64,000 nucleotides of DNA, taken from assembly GCF_900184815.1 (NCBI RefSeq), contig NZ_FXXQ01000007.1, positions 159,501-223,500 on the forward strand. Reading direction: 5' to 3'. Under the pieces are notes generated by a model. It did no database searches, was not told the DNA's origin, and saw nothing but the letters and a program-made list of their open reading frames with translations. Numbering within the stretch: the stretch's first letter is position 1; each line of letters opens with the position of its first letter. This document shows positions 3,001 through 25,919 of the stretch, piece after piece. The position numbers and the translations under genes are program-made. The DNA is from Boseongicola aestuarii. GTDB lineage: Bacteria > Pseudomonadota > Alphaproteobacteria > Rhodobacterales > Rhodobacteraceae.

Positions 3001-3310
3001 CAAGGCGAAGGCAGCCATCTTTCAGAGTGAGAAGCTGCCCTGGCGGGATCAGATAGATTAACCCGCTTTCCGCCCGCATTCCGTCTTCGGCCACCTGGAC
3101 CGGAGCGGCTATCTTCCTGGACAACAGCTCGGGCAGCAGGCTTTCATGGTCGGGATCAAGGTGCTGTACCAGAACGATTGCAAGACCGTGGCCGGGCCTT
3201 AACCCGGATAGCAGAGTGCAAAACGCGTCCAGCCCACCGGCTGACGCGCCGACGCCAACCACGACCGGGCCGCAATGCAGGTCCAACTCACTATAGGCTT
3301 CGTCACGCAT
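1..3310 (-). CDS. CheB-CheR-PAS-HWE sensory histidine kinase (3' end cut by window edge)
   Basis: The reading frame opens at the ATG at 3310 and stays open for about 1,103 codons to the window edge, so the C-terminus is missing. In order I read a CheB methylesterase domain (GASAGG with Ser ~23, VLVQH with His ~50, SGTGSDG with Asp ~145), then a CheR methyltransferase domain (GCSTGQEA SAM motif ~312, later SCRNVAIYF), and a repetitive NEEL/NEEM coiled coil around residues 645-700. One or two PAS-like domains follow, then an HWE/HisKA_2 kinase core (LQHRVKNM, phospho-His ~960; HELATNAVKYGA N-box ~1062). This architecture is known for soluble cytosolic kinases of alphaproteobacteria, often tied to general stress or light/redox sensing. 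Output partner and signal cannot be told from the window. No response regulator gene is adjacent on the visible side. Confidence 0.93.
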   Translation of the reverse strand, partial: MRDEAYSELDLHCGPVVVGVGASAGGLDAFCTLLSGLRPGHGLAIVLVQHLDPDHESLLPELLSRKIAAPVQVAEDGMRAESGLIYLIPPGQLLTLKDGCLRLEAYSKARGIRRPIDAFFESLAKDVGVQGVGVILSGTGSDGSTGVRAIKEAGGLVFVQDPKQADYDGMPKSAIATGAQDLVLPTDEMVDVINDYFSIRTDLQPSKLSDDEFIERIAKHVCYRTGHDIQHYKKSTLLRRLAVRMSVLGIPNPNDYVKELIANKAEAPKLFRDLLINVTSFFRDPDAFDALAKTVLPDILGGKCEGDEVRIWVPGCSTGQEAFTIAMLIADELERTSAQPRVSIFATDIDEDAIKIARKGRYPASIADEIPPSFLTTYFNATDDGFEVSPKLREMVRFSSQSIIKDPPFSRVDLVSCRNVAIYFEPDLQDFALSVFHYALNEGGHLFLGPSEMPRNNNQLFAPNNSRLRLYRRSKGPAQRLNFPATSASPYCARTEPEDALRQASREPYARTLIDKIAPPFIVADKAGNLIYTSERAVPYFRIKPGSTRLGLTQLIVAELEPALRRLLASAERDGERCEQEYRGKFAGKDVRILLSLEFLEDRSRLLVIEDRLDLVEHREVVVAGVGSLDDSYVQGIEAELENARETIRTTVEELETSNEELKSSNEEMMSMNEELQSGNEELSTTNEELQSKVAELREANDDLANLMGSTDVITLFLDDDLRLRFFTPGSQCVFRFVDANCGRRIDDIGGDIDTAYLRARCREVLTSGVPINEEVETNSRDRRYALKILGYSGDGASRRRGIVCTMTGITELRQAVSAAEAERRVSQRSLAEIEQLYFVSPQAMALTSPDTTYLRVNRQMAEINGRDAAAHFGEKMRDIVPDLGEQIDAAFKTVLSEGEPIVGLHMEGETAAHAGDRRLFSTDWYPVRIDDEIVAVGVNFRDITEQTEMQAELRRMMQELQHRVKNMLSNVLALVSRARREAGADVSVLDTLAARIRALSQTHKLLTKENWRAADIYALIEPELTHVYGVERVNLAGPRIELNARAAVALGMAIHELATNAVKYGAFSQGGGRVSLSWMRIDDGTAERVVFRRIESGGPAVP

Positions 3311-3469
3311 CGTCCGCCTCTTTCGTTCCGGGTCGACGCCCCGCAACGTGGCAGAAGATCGACAGCAACGCCCCTTAACGGAGAGCTACAGTCAACAATT
3401 ACATCTTAAGGTAGAGTTATACGCAACCAAAAAGTGACCTCTCCCGCGACATTCCGCGGGTTGAACGCC

Positions 3470-3760
3470 TCAGTCCGTGCCTTCAACCAGGATGATCACG
3501 CTCTCCGCGTTTCGTCGGCGTATTTCAGCGACGGCTTGATATTCAGGATCGTGATAGGCCTTTTTTGCAAGCTCATAGCTGTCAAACTCGATCAGAACGT
3601 GGCGCATCAGGCTCTCGCCTTCGACAGTTTCCGATTGGCCGCCTCGGATGACGAAACGCCCTCCAAGAGCAGTCAGAATTGGAGTGTCTTTTTCCACATA
3701 TTCCTTGTAGCCATCCGCGTCTTGGACCGTAATGTGCCCCATGATATAGCCCTTAGCCAT
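3470..3760 (-). CDS. DUF1330 family protein
   Basis: This 96-residue protein begins MAKGYIMGHI and carries the DUF1330 pattern: an N-terminal strand, an YxxYxxxxxP region, GGRFVIRGG, a VLIEF strand, then a short AYHDPEYQ helix and RRNAESVIILVEG. The family is a small dimeric alpha/beta-barrel fold related to NIPSNAP and antibiotic monooxygenases; its biochemical function is not established. I chose the third in-frame ATG (3760) because GGAGAACGGG lies just upstream; starts at 3781 and 3775 are possible. It stands alone between the kinase and the ExbD operon. A second DUF1330 paralogue lies at 58894-59223. Confidence 0.85.
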   Translation of the reverse strand: MAKGYIMGHITVQDADGYKEYVEKDTPILTALGGRFVIRGGQSETVEGESLMRHVLIEFDSYELAKKAYHDPEYQAVAEIRRRNAESVIILVEGTD

Positions 3761-3826
3761 CTTCCCGTTCTCCATTTTCAAAGATGAATTGTCGTCGATT
3801 CGCCATGTTATGCTGTTTGTGCGACG

Positions 3827-4198
3827 TTATTCCCGGGGACGCGCGACCACCAGTTGAACGGTGATCGCACCAGCCTGCTGCGCATCTGCCAGAACACGAG
3901 CCAGGATGGCGCCATCGAGATCGCGCGCAACGCGTAGTTCAACGCTCAGGCCCGAAAGTGGTCCAAGCGATGTCCTGCGCTGGCCATCTCTCCAAAGCGT
4001 CCCCTCGCGTTCGACGAACAGAACAACATCCCCTGCCGCCTCCGCCGATCCGTCCGCTTCGGGAGGATCGATCCGAACCGGATCCAGAGGTGCAATCACG
4101 GCGGTCATCAGGAAAAAAATCAACAGCAAGAAAGCGACATTGATCATTGGCACGATATTCTCCACGCGTTGGTGGCGCGGTTCGCTCAACCGGATCAT
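3827..4198 (-). CDS. ExbD/TolR-family protein, second copy of the operon
   Basis: This 123-residue protein has one N-terminal membrane helix (about residues 17-37) preceded by a basic cytoplasmic tail. The conserved ion-path Asp of ExbD/TolR would sit in the VPMI(D) motif, but here the sequence reads VPMINVAFLLL, so it appears to be Asn. A periplasmic domain with a predicted beta-alpha fold follows. Its start overlaps the stop of the upstream ExbD by 4 bp, so the three genes are translationally coupled. With ExbB/TolQ it would form an inner-membrane proton-driven motor. The missing Asp suggests a structural rather than proton-conducting role (inference). Confidence 0.85.
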   Translation of the reverse strand: MIRLSEPRHQRVENIVPMINVAFLLLIFFLMTAVIAPLDPVRIDPPEADGSAEAAGDVVLFVEREGTLWRDGQRRTSLGPLSGLSVELRVARDLDGAILARVLADAQQAGAITVQLVVARPRE

Positions 4199-4572
4199 TC
4201 GACAAGCGTCAGGGCAGTCAGCCCTTCCTGTCGCAAGTCGCTCATGACATCGACTATTCGCTGCACATCTGCAGTACCACGCGCCCGGAAGACCACGATA
4301 TCGGTCGGGTTATCCATCAGGATCAAGACCCGGCGCGCAAGCTCGGATTGCGGGATTTGCACGCCATTCAAAAGGACAGCATTCGGCGTCACATCCACCA
4401 GTCGCGGAGGACCGGTGTAGGCGCCGCCGCCACCAAGCGTGATAGGCACCACCGCCGTCTGGTCAAATCGCGCGGCCAGCATGAAGAAGACCAGCAACAG
4501 AAAAACCACGTCGATCATCGGCGTCAGGCTCATGACACGGCGACGTCGTATGGGCTGAAGCGTCAGGCTCAT
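4195..4572 (-). CDS. ExbD/TolR-family protein with canonical ion-path Asp
   Basis: This 125-residue protein has a basic N-terminus (RRRRVMS) followed by LTPMIDVVFLLLVFFML. This is the ExbD/TolR transmembrane helix with the conserved Asp (about residue 21) used for proton translocation. The periplasmic domain is short. Its ATG overlaps the stop of the ExbB-like gene (ATGA), and its own stop overlaps the next ExbD start. Paralogous ExbD pairs downstream of one ExbB are known in several proteobacteria and usually serve a TonB or related energy-transduction complex. No tonB gene is visible here. Confidence 0.92.
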   Translation of the reverse strand: MSLTLQPIRRRRVMSLTPMIDVVFLLLVFFMLAARFDQTAVVPITLGGGGAYTGPPRLVDVTPNAVLLNGVQIPQSELARRVLILMDNPTDIVVFRARGTADVQRIVDVMSDLRQEGLTALTLVE

Positions 4573-5198
4573 TCAGCAGCCGATTGCAAGCCCGCCGGTT
4601 GCGCAAGAAAGACGCGCACAAGCAGGTCCTCAAGATCGCTGGCAACGCGATCAATCACCGCCTCAAACCACGCCAGGGCAAGAGCCGCCGGGATCGCCAC
4701 TGCCATGCCGGCAGCCGTCGTCAACAAGGCTTCCCAAATGCCACCCGCCAGAACCGAGGCGTCTGCCTGCGCGCCACTTGTCTGAAGCGCCTGAAACGCG
4801 GCAATCATGCCCAAAACGGTGCCCAAGAGCCCAAGCAGCGGCGCAATCGTCGAAATCACCTCGAGAACCCGAAGCCCACGACGCGCCTCTGCAAGAGAAC
4901 GACGCGCAACGCGTTCGGTCTCTTCGCGGGCTTGTTCCGTCGCAAGCCGCGTATCGGTCACGGCCTCCATCGCCGCGCGTACGACCAGCATCCGCAATCC
5001 GCCGCCATGGCCTGCGTCGACGTGGCCATCCAGCCGAAAGGCTTCAACGGCCGCCTCGGCGCGCGCGCCGCCCCATGCCCCAAGTATCGACAACTGCCAG
5101 AGCTTCCACAGGATCACCGCCAATCCCACGACGCTTAGGGCAGCGATGACCCAGATCACCGCGCCTCCACGCTCCAAAAGCCCAAGTATCGGCGACAT
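4569..5198 (-). CDS. ExbB/TolQ/MotA-family proton channel protein
   Basis: Starting at the ATG at 5198 (MSPILGLLERGG) the product is 209 residues, a normal size for ExbB/TolQ; the frame extends 20 codons further up to 5258. Three hydrophobic segments are visible: near the N-terminus, around VISTIAPLLGLLGTVLGMIAAF, and ALLTTAAGMAVAIPAALA. The latter two hold the conserved family signatures, GLLGTVxGMI and TTAxGMxVAIPA. The protein is expected in the inner membrane as the pentameric channel of an ExbB-ExbD motor. It is first in a three-gene operon transcribed leftward, divergent from the hydantoinase operon. Confidence 0.93.
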   Translation of the reverse strand: MSPILGLLERGGAVIWVIAALSVVGLAVILWKLWQLSILGAWGGARAEAAVEAFRLDGHVDAGHGGGLRMLVVRAAMEAVTDTRLATEQAREETERVARRSLAEARRGLRVLEVISTIAPLLGLLGTVLGMIAAFQALQTSGAQADASVLAGGIWEALLTTAAGMAVAIPAALALAWFEAVIDRVASDLEDLLVRVFLAQPAGLQSAAE

Positions 5199-5307
5199 CG
5201 CCCGCGCCCTTCCTATTTTCGACCGCGCCACACTGCCTGTCACCCTTGGGAAGCGCAAGCCTCACGACCTGCTTGTCGATCCACGCGTCTCCTGCTCTAG
5301 ATACAGC
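5199..5307. promoter_or_regulatory. divergent intergenic region, ExbB operon / amidohydrolase operon
   Basis: About 109 bp separate the two divergent starts at 5198 and 5308, so promoters and any shared operator for both operons should lie here or inside the first codons. I do not see a convincing sigma-70 box or clear palindrome by eye. This is therefore a positional call only. Confidence 0.4.
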
Positions 5308-6744
5308 ATGGTGGAACATACAAATCTGGTCATTCGAAATGCACGCATACTGTCGTCTGATGGCGACAGGATCGGCGATGTTGAAGTTGGTGATGGCAAA
5401 ATCAAAGCTATCGGAGATGTGCCAGCGACCACTGGCGCGGAAATCGACGCTGAAGGCTATGTGCTGACCCCCGGCGGCGTCGATGTACACGCGCACATTG
5501 AACAAATGTCCGGCATGGGCCTGATGAATGCCGACACGTTCGAAACTGCAACACGATCGGCGGCCCTTGGCGGAACGACATCGGTCATCAGTTTCGCGCC
5601 CCAAAGTGCGGCGCCAAGCCTTGCGCATGCGGTTGAAGATTATGCCGGGCGTGCAAGTTCGGGTGCGATGATTGACTATGCTTTTCATATCATCCTGAAC
5701 GACATGAAGGCGGAAAATGTCGTAGACGATCTGACCGCGCTGATCGCCGTCGGACACCGTTCCATCAAGATATTCACCACATACAACATCCAGCTTTCTG
5801 ACCGCGACATCTGCGAAGTCCTTGGCATCGCAAAAGAAGCAGGCGCTCTTGTCTGCGTTCACGCCGAAAACGATGGCCTAATAGGCTGGACCAAAGACCG
5901 TCTTCTGGCGTCCGGCAAGACCCAACCAAAGCATCACGCCTTGTCGCATCCCCGACTGGCCGAAATCGAAGCCGTCGAGCGCCTCATTCGCTTTGCCGAG
6001 TACTTCGCAACGCCTGTCATGCTGTTCCACATTTCTACGCATGAAGCCGTTAATGCCGTCCGCCACGCCCGCGCGCGCGGTGTCCCGGTCTGGGCGGAGA
6101 CCTGTCCGCATTACCTCTTCATGACCGACGCGGTTCTGGATCGTCCCGGCATTGAAGGCGCGAAATGGATGTGCTCGCCACCACAACGCACAACCGCAGA
6201 TCAGGATGCGCTTTGGGCTGGTCTGTCAGACGGCACGCTTGACCTTGTTTCGTCTGACCATGCCCCCTACCGGTTTGACGAAAGCGGCAAGCTGTCAAAT
6301 GGCAAAAATGCCGATTTCTCGAAGATCGCCAATGGTTTGCCCGGCCTTGAAGTTCGTATGCCGCTGATGTTCGACGCCATGCAGCATGGTCGCATCAGCC
6401 CCATGGAATTCGTCACTTGGTGCTGCACTAACCCCGCCAGAATTCACGGGCTACCCCGAAAAGGCGACATACAGATCGGTTTAGACGCCGACCTCGTGCT
6501 CTGGAATCCCACGAAGCACCACGCTTATGGCGCCAATGACCTGCACGACAACGTCGGCTACAACCCATGGGTCGGAAAAACGATCACGGGATACCCCGAA
6601 ACCGTCTTCCTGCGCGGCTATCCCATTGTGAAAAACGGCGCGCTTGAAGGCAAGGTCGGGCAAGGCCGCTGGATCGCGCGCCCCGCTCCTGGCGTTTCTA
6701 CCACCGCAGCTCCGGCCCCGGAATATGTCGAGGCCACAACATGA
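5308..6744 (+). CDS. cyclic amidohydrolase, dihydropyrimidinase/hydantoinase type
   Basis: This 478-residue cytosolic metal-dependent hydrolase has all binuclear-centre ligands of the dihydropyrimidinase/hydantoinase/allantoinase family. These are HAH (VDVHAHIE), the Lys to be carboxylated (SIKIFTTY), His in VCVHAEN, His in FHISTHE and Asp in SSDHAPY. Length fits D-hydantoinase/dihydropyrimidinase (about 460-490). The likely reaction is ring-opening hydrolysis of a cyclic diamide such as a hydantoin or dihydropyrimidine to its N-carbamoyl acid. The start was taken at MVEHTNLVI because similarity begins there; the frame is open much further upstream over the divergent ExbB gene. The gene overlaps the downstream VOC gene by 4 bp. 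A hydantoin-racemase-like gene in the same operon supports the hydantoin assignment. No N-carbamoylase is adjacent. Confidence 0.88.
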   Translation: MVEHTNLVIRNARILSSDGDRIGDVEVGDGKIKAIGDVPATTGAEIDAEGYVLTPGGVDVHAHIEQMSGMGLMNADTFETATRSAALGGTTSVISFAPQSAAPSLAHAVEDYAGRASSGAMIDYAFHIILNDMKAENVVDDLTALIAVGHRSIKIFTTYNIQLSDRDICEVLGIAKEAGALVCVHAENDGLIGWTKDRLLASGKTQPKHHALSHPRLAEIEAVERLIRFAEYFATPVMLFHISTHEAVNAVRHARARGVPVWAETCPHYLFMTDAVLDRPGIEGAKWMCSPPQRTTADQDALWAGLSDGTLDLVSSDHAPYRFDESGKLSNGKNADFSKIANGLPGLEVRMPLMFDAMQHGRISPMEFVTWCCTNPARIHGLPRKGDIQIGLDADLVLWNPTKHHAYGANDLHDNVGYNPWVGKTITGYPETVFLRGYPIVKNGALEGKVGQGRWIARPAPGVSTTAAPAPEYVEATT

Positions 6745-7127
6745 CCGCCCCCACTGCGCCAAGCCTCGCGATTACGTTCCTTTATTACCGCGACCTGAAA
6801 ACGGCCGAGGCCTTTTACGCTGAAACTCTCGGACTGCCTCTGGTTATCGATCAGGGATGGGCGAAGATCTTTCGACTGGCAGAAGGCGCGCACATCGGGC
6901 TGGTGGATGAATCCCGCGGCATGAACAACTGGCAGGCAGAAAAATGCGTCCAACTCTGCCTTCGGGTTGAAGATGTGGACGCATGGTACGCGTGGGCGAG
7001 AGCCGAAGCCCTCGCGGACCTCAGCGAAATGTTCCAGAACGATGAGATCGGCATTCGCGCATTCGTTTTTTCTGATCCTGAAGGGTATCAAATCGAAGTC
7101 CAGACCCCCACGAGGCAAGGGGCATGA
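6741..7127 (+). CDS. VOC (glyoxalase/bleomycin-resistance) superfamily protein
   Basis: This 128-residue single-unit VOC protein has FLYYRDLKTAEAFYAETLG at the N-terminus and DPEGYQIEVQTP at the C-terminus, the classical ends of the fold. It has few conserved metal ligands by eye. Its start overlaps the amidohydrolase stop (ATGA), and its stop overlaps the racemase start. It is therefore a structural part of the operon and probably acts on, or binds, an intermediate of the same pathway. The specific substrate cannot be read from the sequence. Confidence 0.85.
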   Translation: MTAPTAPSLAITFLYYRDLKTAEAFYAETLGLPLVIDQGWAKIFRLAEGAHIGLVDESRGMNNWQAEKCVQLCLRVEDVDAWYAWARAEALADLSEMFQNDEIGIRAFVFSDPEGYQIEVQTPTRQGA

Positions 7128-7798
7128 CGCTTTACGTGATCAATCCCAATTCATCGCAAGGCGTAACCGATGGTCTGAAAAAGGCACTCTCGCCACTTGA
7201 AGCCTTGGGGCATCCCATCCGGTGCCTCATGCTGAACGAAGGCCCGCCGGGCATTGAAACGCAAGCCCACATCGACAGCGTCATCCAGCCCACGCTTCAG
7301 CTTACCCGTACGCTTGATGACGCAACCGGCTTCGTGATCGCGTGCTTCAGTGATCCCGGCGTCAAAGACATCCGCGCGGAAACGGCACTGCCGGTTCTGG
7401 GCATTCGTGAAGCCGCGATCAGTTCCGCTCTGACACTTGGCAATCGCTTCGGCATCATTGCCATTCGCCAGGGCTCGATCCCCCGCCACCTCGCGGCAGT
7501 CGATGCGATGGGGCTGAGCGATCGCCTGGCCGCGGATCGCGCGCTGGAACTAGGCGTCACCGAACTTGCCGATGAAACCCGCACACTTCAGCGCCTTTTG
7601 TCGACGGCACGACATTTGCGCGATGAAGATGGCGCCGATGTCGTGATCCTCGGATGCGCCGGCATGGCGCAATACCGCGCACGCGTTGAAGCTGCCACAG
7701 GCCTGCCTACAATCGACCCGACTCAGGCCGCCACAGCCATGGCGCTTGGTCGTATTTTCCTTCGTCAATCTCACAAACCAGAGGTCAACCATGCTTGA
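7124..7798 (+). CDS. Asp/Glu/hydantoin racemase family protein
   Basis: This 224-residue protein begins TLYVINPNSS, typical of hydantoin racemases. It carries the two catalytic cysteines of the family, in VIACFSDPGV (about residue 69) and ILGCAGMAQY (about residue 177). Racemases of this family interconvert D- and L-5-substituted hydantoins by proton transfer between the two Cys. It sits directly after the VOC gene (4-bp overlap) and overlaps the DapA-like gene by 8 bp. Together with the amidohydrolase this strongly suggests handling of racemic cyclic amides, although aspartate/glutamate or allantoin racemase activity remains possible. Confidence 0.88.
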   Translation: MTLYVINPNSSQGVTDGLKKALSPLEALGHPIRCLMLNEGPPGIETQAHIDSVIQPTLQLTRTLDDATGFVIACFSDPGVKDIRAETALPVLGIREAAISSALTLGNRFGIIAIRQGSIPRHLAAVDAMGLSDRLAADRALELGVTELADETRTLQRLLSTARHLRDEDGADVVILGCAGMAQYRARVEAATGLPTIDPTQAATAMALGRIFLRQSHKPEVNHA

Positions 7799-8702
7799 TG
7801 AATCCGCCAAGGGTGTCTTCACAATCGCCGCAACTCCCTTTCTGCCCAATGGCGCGCTGGACATCGAAAGCCTTGATACCATGACGGATTTCTACATGGA
7901 GAAAGGCGCAACAGGCCTGACGATCCTCGGAATCATGGGCGAGGCTGGCAAGCTCTCGGCGGGCGAAAACGCAACGGTCATTGAACGCATCTGTGCACGC
8001 GCCACCGTGCCGGTCATCGTTGGCGTCTCGGCACCGGGGTTCGCGCAGATAGAAGCCACCACTGAAGTCGCCATGGCAAAAGGCGCGGCTGGCGTGATGG
8101 TCGCGCCGCCCTCAAGCCTTCGCACAGATGCGCAGATTACCGGATACTATCGAACCCTCGGCGAACGGCTCGGTAAGACCCCTTGGGTCATTCAGGACTT
8201 TCCGCTTGTGACCGATGTGCAGGTTGACCCCAAAGTCATCCTCCAAATCGTCGAGGACAACCCGGCGTGTGTGATGCTAAAGCACGAGGACTGGCCGGGT
8301 CTGGAAAAAATTGCCGCCCTGCGCGCAGCCTCGGACGCCGGAAGCAGACGCATCTCCATACTTTGCGGCAATGGCGGCCAGTTTCTCCTTGAAGAAATGA
8401 TCCGCGGCGCGGACGGGGCCATGACCGGCTTTGCCTACCCCGAAATGATGCGCGATGTGACAACACTCATGTCCGCCGGGGATGAAAGCGCCGCTCGCGA
8501 CATCTTCGACGCCTACCTGCCCCTGGTGCGCTACGAAAGCCAACCCGGCCTCGGTCTGGCCATTCGCAAATACATCCTGGCCAAACGTGGCGCGATCGCC
8601 CACGCCACCGTCCGCGCGCCGGGTCCCAAGCTCAGCAAGGCCGCAATCGCGGAAATCGAAACCCTGATCGAACGTCAGCAACAACGCCTCGCGGCGCTTT
8701 GA
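7791..8702 (+). CDS. DapA/NAL-superfamily aldolase-lyase lacking the canonical Tyr
   Basis: This 303-residue TIM-barrel protein of the dihydrodipicolinate synthase/N-acetylneuraminate lyase superfamily starts at MLDESAKG. The Schiff-base Lys is present (VMLKHEDWPG, about residue 163). The canonical GTTGE is GIMGE here, and the catalytic Tyr of the YNxP motif is replaced (WVIQDFP, Gln at the Tyr position). A true dihydrodipicolinate synthase is therefore unlikely; a hydratase-aldolase or other pyruvate-type lyase chemistry is more plausible (inference). It is the last gene of the hydantoinase operon, overlapping the racemase end. It may process the carbon skeleton released upstream. Confidence 0.85.
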   Translation: MLDESAKGVFTIAATPFLPNGALDIESLDTMTDFYMEKGATGLTILGIMGEAGKLSAGENATVIERICARATVPVIVGVSAPGFAQIEATTEVAMAKGAAGVMVAPPSSLRTDAQITGYYRTLGERLGKTPWVIQDFPLVTDVQVDPKVILQIVEDNPACVMLKHEDWPGLEKIAALRAASDAGSRRISILCGNGGQFLLEEMIRGADGAMTGFAYPEMMRDVTTLMSAGDESAARDIFDAYLPLVRYESQPGLGLAIRKYILAKRGAIAHATVRAPGPKLSKAAIAEIETLIERQQQRLAAL

Positions 8703-8741
8703 TTCTAGATCCTTTCGGCAACCACCACGGGGGTGAGCGCA

Positions 8742-8765
8742 GCGAGGGGGCAGAGCCCCCCTCGC
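8742..8765 (+). terminator. GC-rich hairpin after the hydantoinase operon
   Basis: GCGAGGGGG (8742-8750) pairs with CCCCCTCGC (8757-8765) around a 6-nt loop. It lies 40 bp after the DapA-like stop and before mipZ. No U-tract follows on the plus strand; an A-rich run follows instead. It may be a weak or bidirectional terminator or a common GC-rich intergenic stem. Confidence 0.5.
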
Positions 8766-8874
8766 AAGAAAAACCTGCGCGCCTTCAACACTCATACTTT
8801 TCTTGCAGGCTTTCCCAACCTATAGTGCCGCCAACCAGCGGCATCGGGACCGCCCAAAAAACCAGAGGCATGCA

Positions 8875-9684
8875 GTGGCCCATATTATCGTCGTAGGCAA
8901 CGAAAAGGGCGGCGCGGGGAAATCCACCGTCTCCATGCATATATCGACGGCGCTGGTGCGCATGGGGCATGTGGTTGGGGTTCTAGACCTTGATCTCAGG
9001 CAGAAAAGCTTTGGACGCTACGTGGAAAACCGCAAGGCATTTCTCGATGCAGAAGGCCTCGATCTCCCCACGCCAATCTACCGAGACCTGCCAGCAATAA
9101 GCGCCGATAGCCTCGCGCCGGGTGAAAACGTCTATGATCAGCGTTTGTCCGCGGCAGTCACCGGACTTGAGCGTGAGGTCGACTTTATCCTCATCGATTG
9201 CCCCGGCTCACACACGCGCCTCAGCCAGGTCGCGCATTCACTGGCCGACACGCTTGTGACGCCTTTGAACGACAGTTTTGTCGATTTCGACCTTCTGGCG
9301 CGCATTGATCCGCAGTCAAACCGCATCCTCGGCCCTTCGGTTTATTCCGAAATGGTCTGGAACGCGCGGCAACTTCGCGCACAAGCTGGTCTTGACCCGA
9401 TTGACTGGGTCGTCGTGCGCAACCGCGTTGGCGCCCAGCAGATGCACAACAAAAAGAAAATGGCGCAAGCTGTCGACGCGCTGGCCAAACGGATCGGATT
9501 TCGTGTTGCCCCCGGATTTTCCGAGCGCGTCATTTTCCGCGAGCTGTTTCCACGCGGCCTGACATTGCTCGATCTACGCGATATCGGCGTTCAGAACCTG
9601 AATTTATCGAATGTCGCCGCGCGCCAAGAGCTCCGCGAGTTGGTGAAAGAACTCCGATTGCCCGGTGTCACAGTCGACTTCTAA
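8875..9684 (+). CDS. mipZ: MipZ, ParA-like ATPase positioning the division septum
   Basis: This 269-residue cytosolic protein begins (G)TG-AHIIVVGNEKGGAGKST, the deviant Walker A of ParA/MinD/MipZ. Later features are DLDLRQKSF, VDFILIDCPG (Walker B-like) and the conserved stretch DSFVDFDLLARIDP, diagnostic of MipZ. In alphaproteobacteria MipZ forms a gradient from ParB-bound poles and inhibits FtsZ polymerisation away from midcell. I chose the GTG at 8875 because AGAGG lies 6 bp upstream and similarity starts at the next residue; the frame runs open from 8803. Its stop overlaps by 17 bp the stop of a convergent gene. Confidence 0.95.
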   Translation: MAHIIVVGNEKGGAGKSTVSMHISTALVRMGHVVGVLDLDLRQKSFGRYVENRKAFLDAEGLDLPTPIYRDLPAISADSLAPGENVYDQRLSAAVTGLEREVDFILIDCPGSHTRLSQVAHSLADTLVTPLNDSFVDFDLLARIDPQSNRILGPSVYSEMVWNARQLRAQAGLDPIDWVVVRNRVGAQQMHNKKKMAQAVDALAKRIGFRVAPGFSERVIFRELFPRGLTLLDLRDIGVQNLNLSNVAARQELRELVKELRLPGVTVDF

Positions 9685-11732: not shown

Positions 11733-12938
11733 ATGTTCAAAAGCCCGGCCATGACCTTCATCCTGATCACGCTGATGATCGACGCCATTGGAATTGGCAT
11801 CGTCTTTCCAATCATGCCCGATCTCATGGACCGGGTGGGCGCGGGCGACACCGGTCAAGGAGCCTTTTGGGGTGGCCTGCTGATGGCCGCCTACGCGGGC
11901 GCACTCTTCCTCTCAGGCCCGATCATCGGGAGCATCTCGGACACTATTGGGCGCAGACCCGTGCTGATTGCGGCCCTTGTCATGCTGGCGCTGGACTATG
12001 TCATTATGGCTTTGGCCGACAGTTTCTGGTTATTGCTGGTTGGACGGACACTGGCCGGACTTGCAGGTGCCACATATGTCACGGCGACGGCTTACGTTGC
12101 TGACATCTCGACAGCAAAAGAAAAGGCCGCCAATTTCGGTCTGATCGGTGCGGCCTTCGGCATTGGGTTTGTTCTTGGCCCGGCCTTGGGCGGAATTGCC
12201 GCCGAAATCAGTATTTCAGCTCCCTTCTGGATTGCGGCCGTCCTCTCGACCTCGAATGCCTTATTTGGGTACTTCGTCTTGCCCGAGAGCCTGCCACCGG
12301 AAAATCGCCGACCTTTCGGCAAACGAGATCTGAACCCGTTCAAATCGATCCTTGATGCTCTTCGCCTTCAGGGCCTGGCCATTCCGCTGACCTGTATCTT
12401 CATTTTCGAGTTCGCAAACATGGTTTACCCGACCATCTGGGCGTTCTGGACCCGCGAGGTATTTGACTGGCCGACCCTCTATATCGGTCTGTCGCTCGCC
12501 ACCTATGGTGTGCTTTTGGCCCTGGTGCAGGGTGGGCTATTGCCGGTTCTGATCAATCGGTTCGGGGACTATCGCACGTTGATTCTGGGGATGCTTTCGG
12601 CGTTGGCCGGGCTGATCGGTTTTGGCTTTACCGGCTCGATCTCGGCATTGATCATTTTCCTTTTGCTTGCCGCAATGTCAGACCTTGTTCCCGCGTTGAT
12701 GACGGCCATGGCGTCCAATCAGGTGGATGAGGACCGACAGGGCGTCGTTCAGGGCGTTATCGCGTCGTTGACTTCCGTTGCTGCTATCTTGTCCCCCATC
12801 GCCATGACCGCGCTGTTCCAGGCATCGGTCGATGAGCGGGGGACCTACTTCCCCGGAGCGTCATTCCTCTTCGCGGCTTTATTGGTCTTCTTGATGATCC
12901 CGCTTGCGATCCGTCTGCGCGGACATGCGTCCTCCTAA
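11733..12938 (+). CDS. MFS exporter, TetA-like (DHA1 family)
   Basis: This 401-residue inner-membrane protein has about 12 hydrophobic segments. The N-terminus FILITLMIDAIGIGIVFPIMPDL matches the TetA(DHA1) first helix, and the loop 2-3 motif A reads GPIIGSISDTIGRRP, as in tetracycline/H+ antiporters. The second helix pair contains GRTLAGLAGA and the motif C region GIGFVLGPALGG. These proteins export drugs or metabolites with proton antiport. Substrate cannot be assigned: distant chromosomal TetA-like proteins often do not confer tetracycline resistance. It is a single gene with no visible TetR partner. Confidence 0.88.
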   Translation: MFKSPAMTFILITLMIDAIGIGIVFPIMPDLMDRVGAGDTGQGAFWGGLLMAAYAGALFLSGPIIGSISDTIGRRPVLIAALVMLALDYVIMALADSFWLLLVGRTLAGLAGATYVTATAYVADISTAKEKAANFGLIGAAFGIGFVLGPALGGIAAEISISAPFWIAAVLSTSNALFGYFVLPESLPPENRRPFGKRDLNPFKSILDALRLQGLAIPLTCIFIFEFANMVYPTIWAFWTREVFDWPTLYIGLSLATYGVLLALVQGGLLPVLINRFGDYRTLILGMLSALAGLIGFGFTGSISALIIFLLLAAMSDLVPALMTAMASNQVDEDRQGVVQGVIASLTSVAAILSPIAMTALFQASVDERGTYFPGASFLFAALLVFLMIPLAIRLRGHASS

Positions 12939-13050
12939 ACGCCAGGTTGAAAAGCCTTCAGCCGTCGAGGCACCAAGGTCAATGGTCGCTTGCCAATGGT
13001 CACCGAGCATGGAAATCTTGTTGAAACAAATGGTTCAAGGGAAAGCGGCA

Positions 13051-14478
13051 ATGCAGAATACAGACGTGATTTGGGAGAATGTTGATCGCCACAAATCAGA
13101 TCTGATCGGGCTGTCCGATCGCGTCTTTGACATTCCGGAAACGCTCTACAACGAATACAAATCCGTCGCCGAGCACACGGCGATTCTGAAGGAAAAAGGC
13201 TTTCGCATTACCGAGAACGCAGCAGGCATCCCAACGGCCGTGCTGGGAGAAGCCGGTGACGAAGGTCCGGTGATTGCCATTCTGGGCGAATTCGATGCTT
13301 TGCCGTATCTCAGCCAAGAGCCCGGCGTCGCCGAGCCGAGTCCGATTGAAGCTGGCGGGAATGGTCACGGGTGCGGACACAATCTGCTGGGCGCCGCCGC
13401 ACTTCTTGCCGCGACTGCGGTGAAGGACTGGTTGGATGAAGCCGGTATCAAAGCGCGTGTTCGCTACTATGGATGCCCAGCGGAAGAAGGCGGCGCTGCA
13501 AAGGTCTATATGGTGCGTGACGGACTTTTCGACGATGTCGATATCGCTATCTCGTGGCACCCGTCCACATTCACCGCCGTCAATAGGGCGGTATCGCTTG
13601 CAAATACGCGCATCGACTTCACGTTCCATGGCAAGGCCGCGCATGCCGCCGCCGCGCCTGAATTGGGTCGCAGCGCGCTTGATGCTGTGGAGTTGATGAA
13701 TGTCGGGATCAATTACATGCGCGAACACATGCCCGACGGCGCGCGTGTCCACTACGCCTACCTTGATGCGGGCGGCGCGGCGCCAAACGTGGTGCCCCAT
13801 AAAGCCACTGTGCGTCAGTTGGTTCGTGCCAAGGATCTCCCTGAACTGCGATCGTTGGTCGAGCGGGTGAAAAAGATCGCGGAAGGCGCCGCCCTGATGA
13901 CCGAGACCCGCATGGAAAGTAAAGTTTACAGCGGCGTCTCGAACCTTGTGGGCAATCGTGCATTGGAAGAAGCCATGCAGACCGAAATGGACCGATTGGG
14001 GCCCATCGCTTTCGACGACGCAGATCGTGCCTTTGCCCATGAGATCCAAAAGACCCTGACCAAGGACGATATCGCGGTCTCGTTCAGGCGGTGCGGAATG
14101 CCGCCTCCCGATGAAGGTATGGCTCTGTGCGACTTCGTGGCACCGCTTGATCTGCCAAACGGAGGCGGAAACGGTTCGACGGACGTGGGCGACGTAAGTT
14201 GGGCGGTTCCGACGGTACAGGCAAGGATCACCACCTGTGCGGTGGGCACCGTGTTCCACACATGGCAAACCGTTGCACAAGGCAAGGTGCCAGCCGCGCA
14301 CAAGGGCATGGTCTACGCCGCGAAGGTCATGGCGGCCACCGCCAAGCGCGTCATCGAAGACCCTGCCCTTATTGCCAATGCCAAGGCGCAACACGCCGCC
14401 TATCTTGCGAAAACGCCTTACGTCTGTCCGTTGCCGGAAGGTGTGCGGCCACCCCTGGTCGCGAGGGCAGCCGAATGA
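13051..14478 (+). CDS. M20D amidohydrolase, AbgB-like
   Basis: This 475-residue zinc hydrolase of the M20 family has the metal motifs GNGHGCGHN (about residue 110), CPAEEGG (about 148) and HPSTF; the dimerisation lid has DFTFHGKAAHAAAAP. The sequence resembles AbgB, the catalytic subunit of p-aminobenzoyl-glutamate hydrolase, and related N-acyl-amino-acid or indole-acetyl-amino-acid hydrolases. The ATG at 13051 has AAGGGAAA 6-7 bp upstream; the frame is open to 12904. It overlaps the downstream AspA/AstE-type gene by 4 bp (ATGA), making a two-gene deacylase operon facing the peptide ABC importer. An AbgA partner is absent, so the substrate is probably another N-acyl amino acid or small peptide (inference). 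Confidence 0.9.
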   Translation: MQNTDVIWENVDRHKSDLIGLSDRVFDIPETLYNEYKSVAEHTAILKEKGFRITENAAGIPTAVLGEAGDEGPVIAILGEFDALPYLSQEPGVAEPSPIEAGGNGHGCGHNLLGAAALLAATAVKDWLDEAGIKARVRYYGCPAEEGGAAKVYMVRDGLFDDVDIAISWHPSTFTAVNRAVSLANTRIDFTFHGKAAHAAAAPELGRSALDAVELMNVGINYMREHMPDGARVHYAYLDAGGAAPNVVPHKATVRQLVRAKDLPELRSLVERVKKIAEGAALMTETRMESKVYSGVSNLVGNRALEEAMQTEMDRLGPIAFDDADRAFAHEIQKTLTKDDIAVSFRRCGMPPPDEGMALCDFVAPLDLPNGGGNGSTDVGDVSWAVPTVQARITTCAVGTVFHTWQTVAQGKVPAAHKGMVYAAKVMAATAKRVIEDPALIANAKAQHAAYLAKTPYVCPLPEGVRPPLVARAAE

Positions 14479-15431
14479 GCGCAACCGACCCCAACAAATA
14501 CCCGATCGAACTGCTGTTCCCGGATATATCAGCCCACAAGAACGGCAATACGGGCGTTGAGTATTACACTACGTTCGACAGTGGTGTTGCCGGACCACAT
14601 GTTCTGATCAATGCCCTTGTCCACGGCAATGAAGTCTGCGGTGTAATTGCGCTTGAGCATCTGCTCGAGACGGGTGTCAGACCCAAGAAGGGCAAGCTGA
14701 CCCTCGGGTTTTCGAATGTGGCCGCCTATCAGGCGTTTGATCCCGCCGAACCCATGGCAAGCCGGTTTCTGGACGAGGACATGAACCGGGTTTGGGATGT
14801 CGAAACATTGGACGGCGACCGGACAACGTACGAGGTCGAACGTGCCCGCCAGATCCGCCCACTGATCGACACGGTCGATCTGCTTTTCGACGTGCATTCA
14901 ATGCAGCACAAGACCGCTCCGGTGATCGTCGCCGGGCCACTCGACAAAAGTATTGCCATGTCCAGGCGGTTGGGGACGCCTGATATCATTGTTTCAGATG
15001 GTGGACACGCCGCGGGCAAACGCCTGCGCGACTATGGCGGTTTCGGTGATCCGGACAGTCAAAAGACTGCGGTTCTCATCGAATGCGGTCAGCATTGGGA
15101 GGCCGATGCCGCGCCGGTTGCCATCGACAGTGTATATCGCTGGTTGCTTATGCATGAGATGATCGACCCCGAAGTTGCCGCGCCGAACTTGCGGCCACTT
15201 CCGCCGCGTCAGCGCGTAGTGCAGGTTGTTGCACCGGTCACGGTAGAGTCCGAGAATTTTGTGTTTGCGCAGCCGTTCACCGGTCTTGAGACCCTTGCGA
15301 AAGGCGAACTGATCGGCACCGAAGGTGACAAGGAAATCCGGGCGCCGCATGATGGATGTGTGCTGATCATGCCAAGCCGGAGACTGACGCCAGGAGCAAC
15401 TGCTGTGCGCCTTGGTCGATGGGTCGACTGA
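14475..15431 (+). CDS. succinylglutamate desuccinylase/aspartoacylase family zinc deacylase
   Basis: The 318-residue protein has the zinc motif HGNEVCG (His and Glu, about residues 56-59), LLFDVHSMQ carrying the third ligand, and LIECGQHW with the catalytic Glu. These are the four landmarks of the AspA/AstE M14-like family. The reaction expected is release of an acyl group (aspartate, succinate or similar) from an N-acylated amino acid. The C-terminal part, after about residue 240, resembles the beta-barrel domain of this family. It is translationally coupled to the AbgB-like hydrolase and ends 28 bp from the convergent DppF gene. Confidence 0.9.
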   Translation: MSATDPNKYPIELLFPDISAHKNGNTGVEYYTTFDSGVAGPHVLINALVHGNEVCGVIALEHLLETGVRPKKGKLTLGFSNVAAYQAFDPAEPMASRFLDEDMNRVWDVETLDGDRTTYEVERARQIRPLIDTVDLLFDVHSMQHKTAPVIVAGPLDKSIAMSRRLGTPDIIVSDGGHAAGKRLRDYGGFGDPDSQKTAVLIECGQHWEADAAPVAIDSVYRWLLMHEMIDPEVAAPNLRPLPPRQRVVQVVAPVTVESENFVFAQPFTGLETLAKGELIGTEGDKEIRAPHDGCVLIMPSRRLTPGATAVRLGRWVD

Positions 15432-15458
15432 TAGGCCGCTGACGCCGCAACCGTCGCT

Positions 15459-16454
15459 TCAACCGTCGTTCAGATGGCAGGCACTGACGCGACCCGGTGA
15501 GATTTCCTTGAGTTTTGGGATCTCTGTCCGGCATCGATCCATCGCATGAGGGCACCGCGGATGGAAATGGCATCCTTTGGGTGGGTGAAGCGGCGACGGG
15601 ATTTCTCCTTTGATCGGCGCATAAATCCGACGATCGGTCTCGAGGCGCGGTGCTTCCGCCAGCAAAGCCTGCGTATAGGGATGGTTTGGTGAGGCGAACA
15701 GATCGTCCGTCGGCGCGGTTTCGACGACCCGACCGAGATACATGATCACCACGCGATCGCTGAGATGCTCGACAACGCCGAGGTCGTGGCTGATGAACAG
15801 GTACGTCAGGCCCAGATCCTCGCGCAGATCCATGAACAGATTGAGTACCTGCGCCTGAATGGAAACGTCCAGAGCCGCAACCGCTTCGTCGCAAACAATG
15901 AAGTCAGGTTGAACCGCCAGTGCGCGCGCGATGCCGATGCGCTGGCGCTGTCCGCCCGAGAACTGATGGGGATAGCGCTGATGATAGGACGGGTCCAGAC
16001 CAACGCGCTGCATCGTCGCCGCGACGTATTCGTCAACGTCGCTTCGACTGATTAAGCCATGAAACAGCGGTGCTTCGCTGATGATGTCCGAGACTTTCAG
16101 GCGTGGATTGAGGCTACTCATCGGGTCCTGAAAAATCATCTGCACCTTGAGGCGGCTTTCCAACAACGCCTTGCCCTTAAGCGTTGTGACGTCCTCGCCC
16201 AGGTACCTTATGACGCCTTCCGAGGGCTGATGGACGCCCGCCACGCAGCGACCAAGGGTGCTTTTGCCACAGCCGCTTTCACCGACAAGGCCCACCACTT
16301 CTCCGGGCATGATGGCCATGTCGACACTGTCAACGGCGTGAACGGTGTGTTCTTCGACCTTGGCGCCCAATCTGCGGGCGAACTTCTCGGCAATATCAAG
16401 CTTCTTGACGAACCTTTTGGATATTGCGTCCAATTGAATGATCGGAGTCGTCAT
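15459..16454 (-). CDS. oligopeptide/dipeptide ABC importer ATPase, DppF/OppF type
   Basis: This 331-residue cytosolic ATPase has Walker A GESGCGKST, Q-loop FQDPMSSLNPR, signature FSGGQRQRIGIARAL, Walker B FIVCDEAVAALD and H-loop FISHD. The C-terminal extension HPYTQALLAEAP plus a CxFHPRCPHAMDRC cluster is characteristic of Opp/Dpp ATPases. The start was set at 16454 (MTTPIIQLD), where its ATG overlaps the TGA of the DppD-like gene. It is the last gene of the dppA-B-C-D-F order and pairs with the preceding ATPase. Confidence 0.95.
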   Translation of the reverse strand: MTTPIIQLDAISKRFVKKLDIAEKFARRLGAKVEEHTVHAVDSVDMAIMPGEVVGLVGESGCGKSTLGRCVAGVHQPSEGVIRYLGEDVTTLKGKALLESRLKVQMIFQDPMSSLNPRLKVSDIISEAPLFHGLISRSDVDEYVAATMQRVGLDPSYHQRYPHQFSGGQRQRIGIARALAVQPDFIVCDEAVAALDVSIQAQVLNLFMDLREDLGLTYLFISHDLGVVEHLSDRVVIMYLGRVVETAPTDDLFASPNHPYTQALLAEAPRLETDRRIYAPIKGEIPSPLHPPKGCHFHPRCPHAMDRCRTEIPKLKEISPGRVSACHLNDG

Positions 16455-17437
16455 GCTGCCGTCCCCCGGTCGAAGGCACCAACAAGCGGATGATGGCATC
16501 TTACCAGATGATCGCCTTCGAGTGTGGAGGCGTCTGGCGAGACCGCGCAGGCCCCGGTGGCGTGGTCACATCTTGGCTGGAATGCGCAACCGGTCGGCAG
16601 GTTCATCGGCAGCGGCGCCATACCACGGATCTGCGTAAGTCGCGTGCCGCGCGCGTTTCGCGACGGCGCGGAACCGATAAGACCGGCAGTATATGGGTGC
16701 GCAGGGCGGTTCACGACTTCGTCTGTCGTTCCCATTTCCACGATCCGCCCGGCGTACATCACCGCAACCCGGTTTGCCAGACCAGCCACCACGGCAAGGT
16801 CGTGCGTGACCCAGATCATGGCCGTGTTGTTTTCCGCGACAAGTTTCTGAATCTCGAACAGGATTTGGGCCTGGATGGTGACATCGAGTGCCGTTGTGGG
16901 TTCGTCCGCGATAATCAGGTCCGGCTGGTGCAGCAGCGCAATGGCGATCGCAACGCGCTGACGCATCCCGCCGGAAAACTGATGCGGGTAGCTTTTCAGG
17001 CGTTCTTCGGGGCTTGGAATACCAACCTGTCCCAAGACGTCACGGCATCTTTGGCGCGCGTCATCGTCGCTCCAGCGCCCATGGGCGCGAAGCGCCTCGA
17101 TCATCTGTGTGTCGACCCGAAGCACCGGGTTGAGCGTCATCATCGGGTCCTGAAAAATCATCGCGATCCGACGCCCGCGCAAATCGCGCATCTGGGGTTC
17201 CGGCAGGTCGACCAGGTTCTGCCCATCAAAGCGGATCGAGCCTTCCGCGATGCGACCGGGCGCATCGACAAGGCCCATGATGGAAAAGCCGGTGACGGAT
17301 TTGCCCGACCCGCTTTCGCCCACGATCCCGAGGATCTCTCCTCGGTCGAGATCGAACGAGACACCATCGACCGACTTGACCACGCCTGCCTTGGTGAAGA
17401 AGTGCGTTTTCAGGTTTTCGATACTGAGGAGTGTCAT
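16451..17437 (-). CDS. oligopeptide/dipeptide ABC importer ATPase, DppD/OppD type
   Basis: This 328-residue ATPase has Walker [11 protein letters not shown]-loop [11 protein letters not shown], signature [15 protein letters not shown], Walker [14 protein letters not shown]-loop WVTHDL, and the C-terminal Opp/Dpp motif [12 protein letters not shown] with a [10 protein letters not shown] cysteine cluster. The start at 17437 (MTLLSIENL) overlaps the DppC stop by 4 bp; the same frame is open much further upstream across dppC. It forms a heterodimeric ATPase with the DppF-like subunit. Confidence 0.95.
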
Positions 17438-19703: not shown

Positions 19704-19771
19704 TGCGCGTGATCTATCCCTGACGACGCGACTTCATTTCACAAAGACGAAGCGGCGGTCGAATTTCAAAG

Positions 19772-19808
19772 GACGGGCGGGAACCTCCTGTAGGTGTTCC
19801 CGCCCGTC
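19772..19808 (-). terminator. perfect 13-bp hairpin between dppA-like and dppB-like genes
   Basis: GACGGGCGGGAAC (19772-19784) is exactly complementary to GTTCCCGCCCGTC (19796-19808) with an 11-nt loop. It lies just after the stop of the solute-binding-protein gene (19819). Such stems typically stabilise the binding-protein mRNA or attenuate read-through, giving more binding protein than permease. No clear U-tract follows, so attenuation or mRNA protection is as likely as full termination. Confidence 0.75.
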
Positions 19809-19818
19809 TGAAGTGAGC

Positions 19819-22816: not shown

Positions 22817-22825
22817 GGCGCCGAC

Positions 22826-25836: not shown

Positions 25837-25919
25837 ATGCCACCGTTACTCGGATTGGTGTCAAAAAAGCCTAGCCGGTACGGCTCCGGCGGTCGATACA
25901 TCTTATCAGTCACGAAGGA

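What the first reader, a model, noticed from the sequence alone, without database searches (positions are those of the whole stretch)
5308..8702. Four-gene hydantoinase-VOC-racemase-DapA operon without a carbamoylase
Amidohydrolase, VOC protein, Cys-pair racemase and DapA-like lyase overlap by 4-8 bp each. Known hydantoin operons use an N-carbamoylase as the next step; here a VOC protein and a lyase take that place. This suggests a different cyclic substrate or a different way of breaking the ring-opened product.
Basis: partly seen in the sequence, partly recalled or inferred. Interest (0 to 1): 0.52.

Follow-up and report, generated by a model that had tools for sequence, protein, structure and literature searches.

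The report
Roseobacter ring-opening operon with odd lyase
Four overlapping genes in a marine bacterium form a compact unit, shared by many relatives, that probably opens a nitrogen-containing ring with a hydantoinase and a racemase and then uses an unusual aldolase-type enzyme; the compound it eats is unknown.

Summary
Four overlapping genes (5308-8702, +) encode a hydantoinase (HYD), a small VOC protein, a two-cysteine hydantoin-racemase-family protein (RAC) and a DapA-fold protein (DAP). It is a real unit: 65 of 80 loci brought in by the VOC family keep HYD-VOC-RAC-DAP in order, while flanks are rarely shared. No carbamoylase-like gene (four references) was found near any of 70 compact cassettes (15 of them cut by contig ends). 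A D-carbamoylase, the usual partner, is absent from the whole genome and from 24 of 25 cassette genomes; a HyuC-type gene is present in 24 of 25, but also in 17 of 20 genomes without the cassette. DAP is not a dihydrodipicolinate synthase: it keeps the Schiff-base lysine but lost the catalytic Tyr/Thr residues and shares Q-D-x-P with L-2-keto-3-deoxyarabonate dehydratase. Yet in sister clusters the same DAP family sits beside genuine D-carbamoylases (7 loci), transaminases or amine oxidases, so there DAP acts with a carbamoylase, probably late, on a 2-oxo acid or imine. Whether the compact cassette borrows HyuC or needs no carbamoylase is open. Substrate unknown. New variant of a known kind.

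The parts
5308..6744 (+). HYD, hydantoinase/dihydropyrimidinase-type amidohydrolase, 478 aa; expected to open the ring
   Evidence: TIGR02033 480.5 bits over cut-off 393.25; metal-ligand positions H61, H63, K154, H185, H241, D317 at least 97% conserved in 82 sequences (roles recalled); nearest solved structure 1nfg D-hydantoinase, E 1.5e-102
6741..7127 (+). VOC-fold protein, 128 aa; role unknown
   Evidence: PF00903; 37 invariant columns in an alignment of 46 sequences; AlphaFold model pLDDT 88 with VOC fold, Z 12.9 to 3fcd and 12.7 (tied) to methylmalonyl-CoA epimerase 6xbs
7124..7798 (+). RAC, Asp/Glu/hydantoin racemase family, 224 aa, two catalytic-type cysteines
   Evidence: PF01177 172 bits; nearest solved 3qvj putative hydantoin racemase E 1.1e-19 and 5lfd allantoin racemase; C74 and C178 at least 97% conserved in 96 sequences
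7791..8702 (+). DAP, DapA-fold Schiff-base-type lyase/dehydratase of the 3dz1 group, 303 aa
   Evidence: PF00701; 3dz1 E 2.4e-97, next L-2-keto-3-deoxyarabonate dehydratase 6e-19; K164 kept, Tyr/Thr of DapA replaced, Q135-D136-x-P138 at least 97% conserved in 124 sequences

Best explanation
The four genes are one catabolic operon for an unidentified chiral cyclic ureide (most likely a 5-monosubstituted hydantoin or a substituted dihydropyrimidine). RAC interconverts the two mirror forms, HYD opens the ring with its two-metal centre to give an N-carbamoyl (ureido) acid, and DAP acts late: its Lys164 forms a Schiff base with a 2-oxo acid (or imine) made from that product and removes water, ammonia or a small fragment, as L-2-keto-3-deoxyarabonate dehydratase does. 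The carbamoyl and amino groups are removed by general enzymes encoded elsewhere; the only candidate carbamoylase found in this genome is the HyuC/PydC-type gene on contig C26. VOC assists an unknown step. Shown: gene order, family membership, conserved catalytic residues, conservation as a unit. Inferred: ureide substrate, order of steps, 2-oxo-acid substrate of DAP, help from elsewhere in the genome.
For: Families and residues. Unit: 65 of 80 loci; overlaps and correlated divergence of the four proteins (Mantel r 0.46-0.78, p 0.001), flanks shared in only 96 of 1711 and 63 of 1770 pairs. DAP together with a carbamoylase and an amine-to-oxo step in sister clusters: seven loci with a D-carbamoylase beside DAP, hydantoinase and RAC (L063, L113, L135, L092, L114, L035, L064; 70-100% to the L063 protein, which is 338 bits to the solved D-carbamoylase 6lei); Microvirga ErtD - HyuC/ErtE - flavin reductase - RAC - GlcD-like oxidase - DAP - SDR; Sulfitobacter alexandrii DAP - SDR - C-N hydrolase - amine oxidase; Salipiger HyuC2, 5-oxoprolinase, D-amino-acid transaminase, aminotransferase, DAP, SDR. 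HyuC-type gene in the own genome and in 24 of 25 cassette genomes.
Against: The D-carbamoylase of the sister clusters is absent from the own genome and from 24 of 25 cassette genomes (1 of 25 has it, against 5 of 20 controls; weak 34-35% matches in two more cassette genomes and one control not counted). The HyuC-type gene is as common without the cassette (17 of 20), and one genome with HYD-VOC-RAC (G204, 96% complete, cassette at a contig end) has neither type. No compact cassette carries a tested carbamoylase or amine-to-oxo gene nearby, apart from one 28% AspAT match in L088. The SDR that follows DAP in sister clusters has a copy of 46% identity or more in 3 of 26 genomes only, one of them linked. 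In one complete genome only HYD and DAP remain (L096), which suits a more direct coupling.
Confidence: 0.4

Rival explanations
1. Carbamoylase-free route: the HYD product carries an imine, an enamine or an alpha-hydroxyl, and DAP's lysine attacks it, expelling urea or ammonia by transimination, so that DAP (perhaps with VOC) truly replaces the carbamoylase.
For: No carbamoylase-like gene near 70 of 70 compact cassettes; 24 of 25 cassette genomes lack a D-carbamoylase altogether; HYD-DAP persists alone in L096, and VOC-DAP without HYD or RAC matches in L167 and L199; DAP resembles a Schiff-base dehydratase, not DapA. A deaminase in the same superfamily (hydroxyproline pathway) is a precedent, recalled from memory.
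Against: Seven sister loci pair the same DAP family with a genuine D-carbamoylase, others with HyuC-type genes. HyuC is available in 24 of 25 cassette genomes. No enzyme of this fold that expels urea is known to me (recalled). A racemase needs a C-H at the ring position, which limits such substrates.
Confidence: 0.25
2. The substrate is a cyclic imide or lactam, not a ureide, so ring opening gives a half-amide and no carbamoyl group exists.
For: Hydantoinases are known to accept imides (recalled); the DAP family also occurs beside 5-oxoprolinase genes (6 of 124 DAP loci) and amidases; D-carbamoylase is rare in cassette genomes.
Against: HYD scores well over the D-hydantoinase cut-off and RAC is nearest to hydantoin and allantoin racemases; both point to ureides.
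Confidence: 0.15
3. An allantoin, ergothioneine or reductive-pyrimidine pathway in disguise.
For: HYD gives allantoinase and ErtD matches; DAP lies in a Microvirga cluster with ErtD and ErtE.
Against: Allantoinase 257.5 bits under cut-off 357.85 and ErtD 210.5 under 650; the own genome has a separate hydantoinase-HyuC pair on contig C26 beside PreA-like/PreT-like ORFs; none of these routes uses a DapA-fold enzyme (recalled).
Confidence: 0.08

Closest known systems
hyu (hydantoin-utilisation) gene clusters: hydantoinase, hydantoin racemase, N-carbamoylase
   Same: Hydantoinase and two-cysteine racemase side by side; ring opening of a racemic substrate is expected.
   Different: No carbamoylase found in or beside the compact operon; VOC and DAP added. 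Passages read in PMC3546935 say such genes are 'often' clustered with carbamoylases, and also that Bradyrhizobium strains hold hydantoinase genes outside such clusters, so a hydantoinase gene without a neighbouring carbamoylase is not new in itself.
D-hydantoin cluster with DAP: ABC transporter - D-carbamoylase - flavin reductase - DAP - SDR - hydantoinase - RAC - LysR (L063, L113, L114 and partly L092, L035, L064, L135)
   Same: Hydantoinase, RAC and DAP families together (RAC 36-50%, DAP 50-53% identical to the window's).
   Different: Has a D-carbamoylase, transporter and, in most, flavin reductase, SDR and regulator; no VOC in the operon.
3dz1 group of the DHDPS/NAL superfamily and L-2-keto-3-deoxyarabonate dehydratase
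   Same: Fold, Schiff-base lysine, Q-D-x-P in place of Y-N-x-P.
   Different: Only about 72 bits to the dehydratase; G-x-M-G-E and K-H-E-D motifs conserved in the group differ from it.
Larger Sulfitobacter/Labrenzia plasmid cluster HYD<>GntR-VOC-ABC transporter-TRZ/ATZ-like hydrolase-RAC-DAP-SDR
   Same: Same four families, 53-67% identical.
   Different: Adds a Dpp-type transporter, GntR regulator, further amidohydrolase(s) and an SDR; HYD is divergently transcribed.

Membership tests
D-hydantoinase/dihydropyrimidinase (TIGR02033) | Score over the curated cut-off | tested here: met
   480.5 bits, cut-off 393.25
D-hydantoinase/dihydropyrimidinase (TIGR02033) | Binuclear metal ligands and carboxylated Lys | tested here: met
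   H61, H63, K154, H185, H241, D317 at least 97% conserved in 82 sequences; roles of the positions recalled
D-hydantoinase/dihydropyrimidinase (TIGR02033) | Hydantoin or dihydropyrimidine hydrolysis | not testable with these tools
   needs an assay
PRK13404 dihydropyrimidinase subfamily (NF009941) | Score over the curated cut-off | tested here: not met
   577.4 bits, cut-off 647
Hydantoin racemase (Asp/Glu racemase superfamily) | Family score and two catalytic cysteines | tested here: met
   PF01177 172 bits; C74 and C178
Hydantoin racemase (Asp/Glu racemase superfamily) | Racemisation of hydantoins | not testable with these tools
   the superfamily also holds allantoin racemase and OpaE
Dihydrodipicolinate synthase DapA (TIGR00674) | Score over the curated cut-off | tested here: not met
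   83.8 bits, cut-off 206.15
Dihydrodipicolinate synthase DapA (TIGR00674) | Tyr-Thr-Tyr catalytic triad (Y133, T44, Y107, numbering recalled) | tested here: not met
   Y-N-V-P is Q-D-F-P, G-T-T-G-E is G-I-M-G-E, P-Y-Y-N is P-P-S-S in the alignment
Dihydrodipicolinate synthase DapA (TIGR00674) | Schiff-base lysine | tested here: met
   K164 aligned, at least 97% conserved in 124 sequences
L-2-keto-3-deoxyarabonate dehydratase | Q-D-x-P at the Tyr133 place and Schiff-base lysine | tested here: met
   alignment with 7c0c/3fkk
L-2-keto-3-deoxyarabonate dehydratase | Dehydration of L-KDA; sugar-acid gene neighbours | not tested
   no sugar-acid gene was among the references; in Salipiger an annotated L-arabinonate dehydratase lies about 8.5 kb from DAP
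VOC superfamily | Fold | tested here: met
VOC superfamily | Metal ligand set (His on first strand, H/Q, E; recalled) | tested here: inconclusive
   invariant Thr12 rather than His on strand 1, but Q71 and E119 invariant in 46 sequences; positions placed by eye
hyu hydantoin-utilisation operon | Carbamoylase in or beside the operon | tested here: not met
   0 of 70 compact loci with four reference proteins; 55 of the 70 have 4.5 kb held on both sides
Ergothioneine utilisation (ErtD) | Score over the ErtD cut-off | tested here: not met
   210.5 bits, cut-off 650

The most novel reading that the evidence does not exclude
A carbamoylase-free way to break down a cyclic ureide: the hydantoinase product goes straight to a DapA-fold lysine enzyme, which expels urea or ammonia through a Schiff base, with the VOC protein preparing the intermediate. 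This would be a new reaction type for the DapA superfamily and a new branch of hydantoin catabolism common in roseobacters.
Probability: 0.18. Interest if true: 0.65.

Novelty: new variant of a known kind. Interest (0 to 1): 0.43.

Why it matters
Roseobacters are common marine degraders (recalled), and this conserved operon (219 stretches encoding relatives of its VOC protein in one genome collection; VOC in 31 of 295 genomes of the family sample) points to a dissolved nitrogen compound whose breakdown route is not known to me. It also gives a concrete setting for the 3dz1 group of DapA-fold proteins, which carry the name dihydrodipicolinate synthase although the catalytic residues are gone. 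The four proteins can be made and tested together, so the question is directly testable.

Tried and rejected
Rejected: DAP as a true DapA (cut-off and catalytic triad not met). Set aside: hydroxyproline-pathway deaminase HypD, suspected after a Sinorhizobium hit; the record is labelled pSYMA and has no annotation there, and neither HypD nor any other hydroxyproline gene was compared, so this is not a real test. Viral origin: 22 pattern matches in viral contigs, none a relative. Ergothioneine and allantoin routes: cut-offs not met. A D-carbamoylase in the own genome: none; its five nitrilase-fold genes type as NAD synthase and apolipoprotein N-acyltransferase (over cut-offs), a deaminated-glutathione-amidase-like and a Nit6803-like protein (under cut-offs) and one distant member, all at most 26% over a long stretch to a D-carbamoylase. 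SDR of sister clusters as an unlinked partner: mostly no close copy. Promoter-like sites 3 found, shuffles 1.1 (sd 1.1); terminator-like 3 found, shuffles 4.0 (sd 2.3): nothing to build on.

Literature: the listings of searches (4 papers; 0; 2; 15 of 27 listed; 6) show no paper whose title or abstract start describes such an operon; only an open-access library was searched. Searches (20 of 151 listed; 4; 12 of 177; 10 of 18; 12 of 52) brought nothing used beyond the name OpaE. Passages of PMC3546935 and PMC7431475 were read; all other papers were seen only as listings with the start of the abstract.

Limits of the counts: neighbour references were hand-picked from annotated plasmids, matches at E 1e-12 or better; D-carbamoylase was added later (E 1e-5). 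The C-N hydrolase reference first used missed the D-carbamoylase of L035, so the count of 9 of 54 becomes 10 of 54. The class 'compact' is defined as HYD, VOC and RAC within 4.5 kb and no SDR match, so absence of SDR there is by definition; L151 and L161 fell out of it through weak SDR matches (26-30%), and L161 has a 38% match to the Sulfitobacter C-N hydrolase on the other strand, so with them the count would be 1 of 72. The 80 loci were chosen by VOC and favour loci with VOC. Searches scored only part of the candidates in many genomes (7 or 10), so their counts are lower bounds. Gene prediction was crude and used only to find conserved neighbours. After the D-carbamoylase results I lowered the main reading from 0.45 to 0.40 and the disguise rival from 0.1 to 0.08, and raised the carbamoylase-free rival from 0.20 to 0.25, the novel case from 0.15 to 0.18 and the interest from 0.42 to 0.43.
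Full report
What is there. The window lies at G000:C56:159501-223500. Four ORFs on the + strand run HYD 5308-6744, VOC 6741-7127, RAC 7124-7798, DAP 7791-8702, overlapping by 4, 4 and 8 bases. Upstream, on the other strand, are ORFs that look like ExbB and ExbD (4569-5258, 4195-4572, 3827-4198; by eye) and a DUF1330 protein; downstream is a ParA-like ORF (8803-9684; by eye). Neither side looks related.

The proteins. HYD scores 480.5 bits against the D-hydantoinase model (cut-off 393.25), is under the cut-offs for PRK13404, allantoinase and ErtD, and matches 1nfg best in the PDB. Its metal-ligand positions H61, H63, K154, H185, H241 and D317 are at least 97% conserved in 82 sequences (roles recalled). 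RAC belongs to PF01177 and is nearest to a putative hydantoin racemase (3qvj) and an allantoin racemase (5lfd); Cys74 and Cys178 are at least 97% conserved in 96 sequences. VOC has 37 invariant columns in 46 sequences and a well-predicted VOC fold (pLDDT 88); the nearest solved structures are a putative glyoxalase (3fcd, Z 12.9, rmsd 2.2, 111 aligned) and, tied, methylmalonyl-CoA epimerase (6xbs, Z 12.7, rmsd 2.5, 118 aligned) among many others. The usual first-strand histidine is absent and Q71 and E119 are invariant, so metal binding is open.

DAP. It is 329 bits to 3dz1, a chain named dihydrodipicolinate synthase, and 72 bits to L-2-keto-3-deoxyarabonate dehydratase. Against dihydrodipicolinate synthases the alignment shows Y-N-V-P replaced by Q-D-F-P, G-T-T-G-E by G-I-M-G-E and P-Y-Y-N by P-P-S-S, while the lysine (K164) stays; the arabonate dehydratase also has Q-D-x-P. 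Q135, D136, P138, M49, G50, E51 and K164-H165-E166-D167 are at least 97% conserved in 124 sequences. So DAP is a Schiff-base-type enzyme without DapA's general acid; dehydratase- or deaminase-like chemistry is more likely than DapA chemistry (inference).

Conservation. DAP was found in 64 of 295 sampled genomes of the family, VOC in 31 of 295 and RAC in 60 of 295 (E limits 1e-60, 1e-20, 1e-30). Reading the coordinates of these three calls, VOC, RAC and DAP are contiguous in 22 of the 31 VOC genomes, spread over a larger cluster in 3, VOC-DAP without RAC in 1, VOC-RAC without adjacent DAP in 3, and scattered or incomplete in 2. A scan of the species genomes with a VOC alignment gave 219 stretches that encode a relative, 80 kept, mostly in records titled as Rhodobacteraceae or roseobacter genera, with a few other Alphaproteobacteria and two actinobacterial MAGs; 65 of the 80 have HYD-VOC-RAC-DAP in order on one strand. 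Junctions: 4-base overlap HYD/VOC in 37 of 65, VOC/RAC in 58 of 65, 8-base RAC/DAP in 35 of 65; distances of the four proteins correlate (r 0.46 to 0.78, p 0.001); only 96 of 1711 upstream and 63 of 1770 downstream flank pairs share a tblastx match. The unit is conserved while its surroundings change, as expected of a self-contained catabolic operon that moves.

Variants. A complete genome with a close DAP (84%) keeps only HYD and DAP (L096; neither VOC nor RAC found in that genome at the limits). L093 has HYD-VOC-DAP, L100 HYD-RAC-DAP, L167 and L199 VOC-DAP. On Sulfitobacter and Labrenzia plasmids the same four families sit in a bigger cluster: HYD divergent from GntR-VOC-solute-binding protein-Dpp-type ABC transporter-second binding protein-TRZ/ATZ-like amidohydrolase-RAC-DAP-SDR. 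A third arrangement is amino-acid-type ABC transporter-D-carbamoylase-flavin reductase-DAP-SDR-hydantoinase-RAC-LysR (L063, L113, L114; partly L035, L092, L064, L135). A fourth puts DAP-SDR beside 5-oxoprolinase genes, a D-amino-acid transaminase, an aminotransferase and, further off, a HyuC-type hydrolase; a fifth puts DAP beside ErtD-like amidohydrolases, AroM-like proteins and amidases.

The missing carbamoylase. Over 124 distinct DAP loci, 70 are compact (HYD, VOC and RAC within 4.5 kb, no SDR match). None of the 70 has a match to HyuC, HyuC2 or the Sulfitobacter C-N hydrolase within 4.5 kb, nor to a D-carbamoylase in the stretch held; 55 of the 70 have 4.5 kb held on both sides of DAP, the rest are cut. 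Among the other 54, 10 have one (9 plus L035). The C-N hydrolase of L063 is a genuine D-carbamoylase by sequence (338 bits, E 3.6e-100 to 6lei), and six more loci carry it at 70-88% identity.

Genome-wide, the own genome has no D-carbamoylase; its five nitrilase-fold genes are other things. It has one gene over the TIGR01879 cut-off, C26:36633-37826, 373.4 bits, beside a hydantoinase (601.6 bits to TIGR02033) and ORFs that read like PreT and PreA (by eye), so probably the reductive pyrimidine pathway's ureidopropionase. Among 25 genomes with the cassette or part of it, a D-carbamoylase (286 bits or more) occurs in 1, against 5 of 20 genomes without VOC or DAP; HyuC-type genes are over the cut-off in 24 of 25 and in 17 of 20. 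So the cassette does not travel with a D-carbamoylase; a HyuC-type enzyme is available from elsewhere, without any sign of a special link, and one genome with part of the cassette (G204, incomplete) has neither.

How it most likely works. RAC and HYD together point to a chiral ring with an acidic C-H, most simply a 5-monosubstituted hydantoin. In sister clusters DAP stands with genes that remove a carbamoyl group (D-carbamoylase, HyuC/ErtE) and could turn an amine into an oxo group (D-amino-acid transaminase, amine oxidase). This fits a late role of DAP on a 2-oxo acid. The compact cassette lacks those genes, so their work is either done from elsewhere (main reading, 0.40), not needed because DAP itself expels the nitrogen (0.25; as a fully new reaction 0.18), or not needed because the substrate is an imide or lactam (0.15). 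The rarity of D-carbamoylase in cassette genomes and the persistence of HYD with DAP alone are the best evidence against the main reading; the D-carbamoylase beside DAP in seven sister loci is the best evidence against the carbamoylase-free one.

Comparison with what is known. The passages read say that hydantoinase and carbamoylase genes are often clustered, that some strains hold hydantoinase genes outside such clusters, and ask what role the hyu genes play (PMC3546935); the racemase-hydantoinase-carbamoylase set is the standard cascade of the applied process (PMC7431475). The listings of searches show no paper on this operon; that covers an open-access library and, for search 76, 15 of 27 papers. 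I rate it a new variant of a known kind: known families, a conserved combination for which I found no description, unknown substrate, and one enzyme family whose usual name is wrong.

Noticed in passing
window 11733-26504: A second catabolic-looking region: an MFS-like ORF (by eye), M20 amidohydrolase, AstE/AspA-like hydrolase, Dpp-type ABC transporter, another M20 peptidase, two M81/MlrC metallopeptidases side by side and an AIG2/gamma-glutamyl-cyclotransferase-like protein.
   Followed up: partly
L043 (own genome, contig C17, 1-19000): Another hydantoinase cluster in the same genome with two racemase-family matches (27% and 30%), a maleate-isomerase-like ORF, a TRZ/ATZ-like hydrolase, transporter ORFs and an amidase (several by eye).
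   Followed up: no
L063 7675-12928 (also L113, L114, L092, L035, L064, L135): A D-hydantoin cluster with D-carbamoylase, hydantoinase, racemase, DAP and (in most) SDR and flavin reductase: a good system for finding what the 3dz1 group does.
   Followed up: partly
L065 10861-12303; L149 7585-8982: SBP_bac_5 proteins, the one in L149 apparently without a signal peptide (by eye), next to the VOC gene in L149 and inside the larger cluster in L065.
   Followed up: partly
L149 (Jannaschia formosa) 3138-9387: VOC and the binding protein stand near an arginase-family gene and a NitT/TauT-like binding protein (by eye), with no match to HYD, RAC or DAP; a different DapA-fold ORF lies at 13007-13906 (by eye).
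   Followed up: no
L068 (Microvirga ossetica plasmid) 13947-22288: DAP family member inside a cluster with ErtD and ErtE over their curated cut-offs, DUF917, flavin reductase and a GlcD-like oxidase: a possible link between ergothioneine breakdown and the 3dz1 group.
   Followed up: partly
L143, L189: Close VOC relatives (65-70%) in Acidimicrobiales and Actinomycetes MAGs with no match to HYD, RAC or DAP in the stretch held.
   Followed up: no
L040 (wider stretch of L032): A DAP relative with stop codons inside and in several reading-frame pieces, a likely decayed copy.
   Followed up: no
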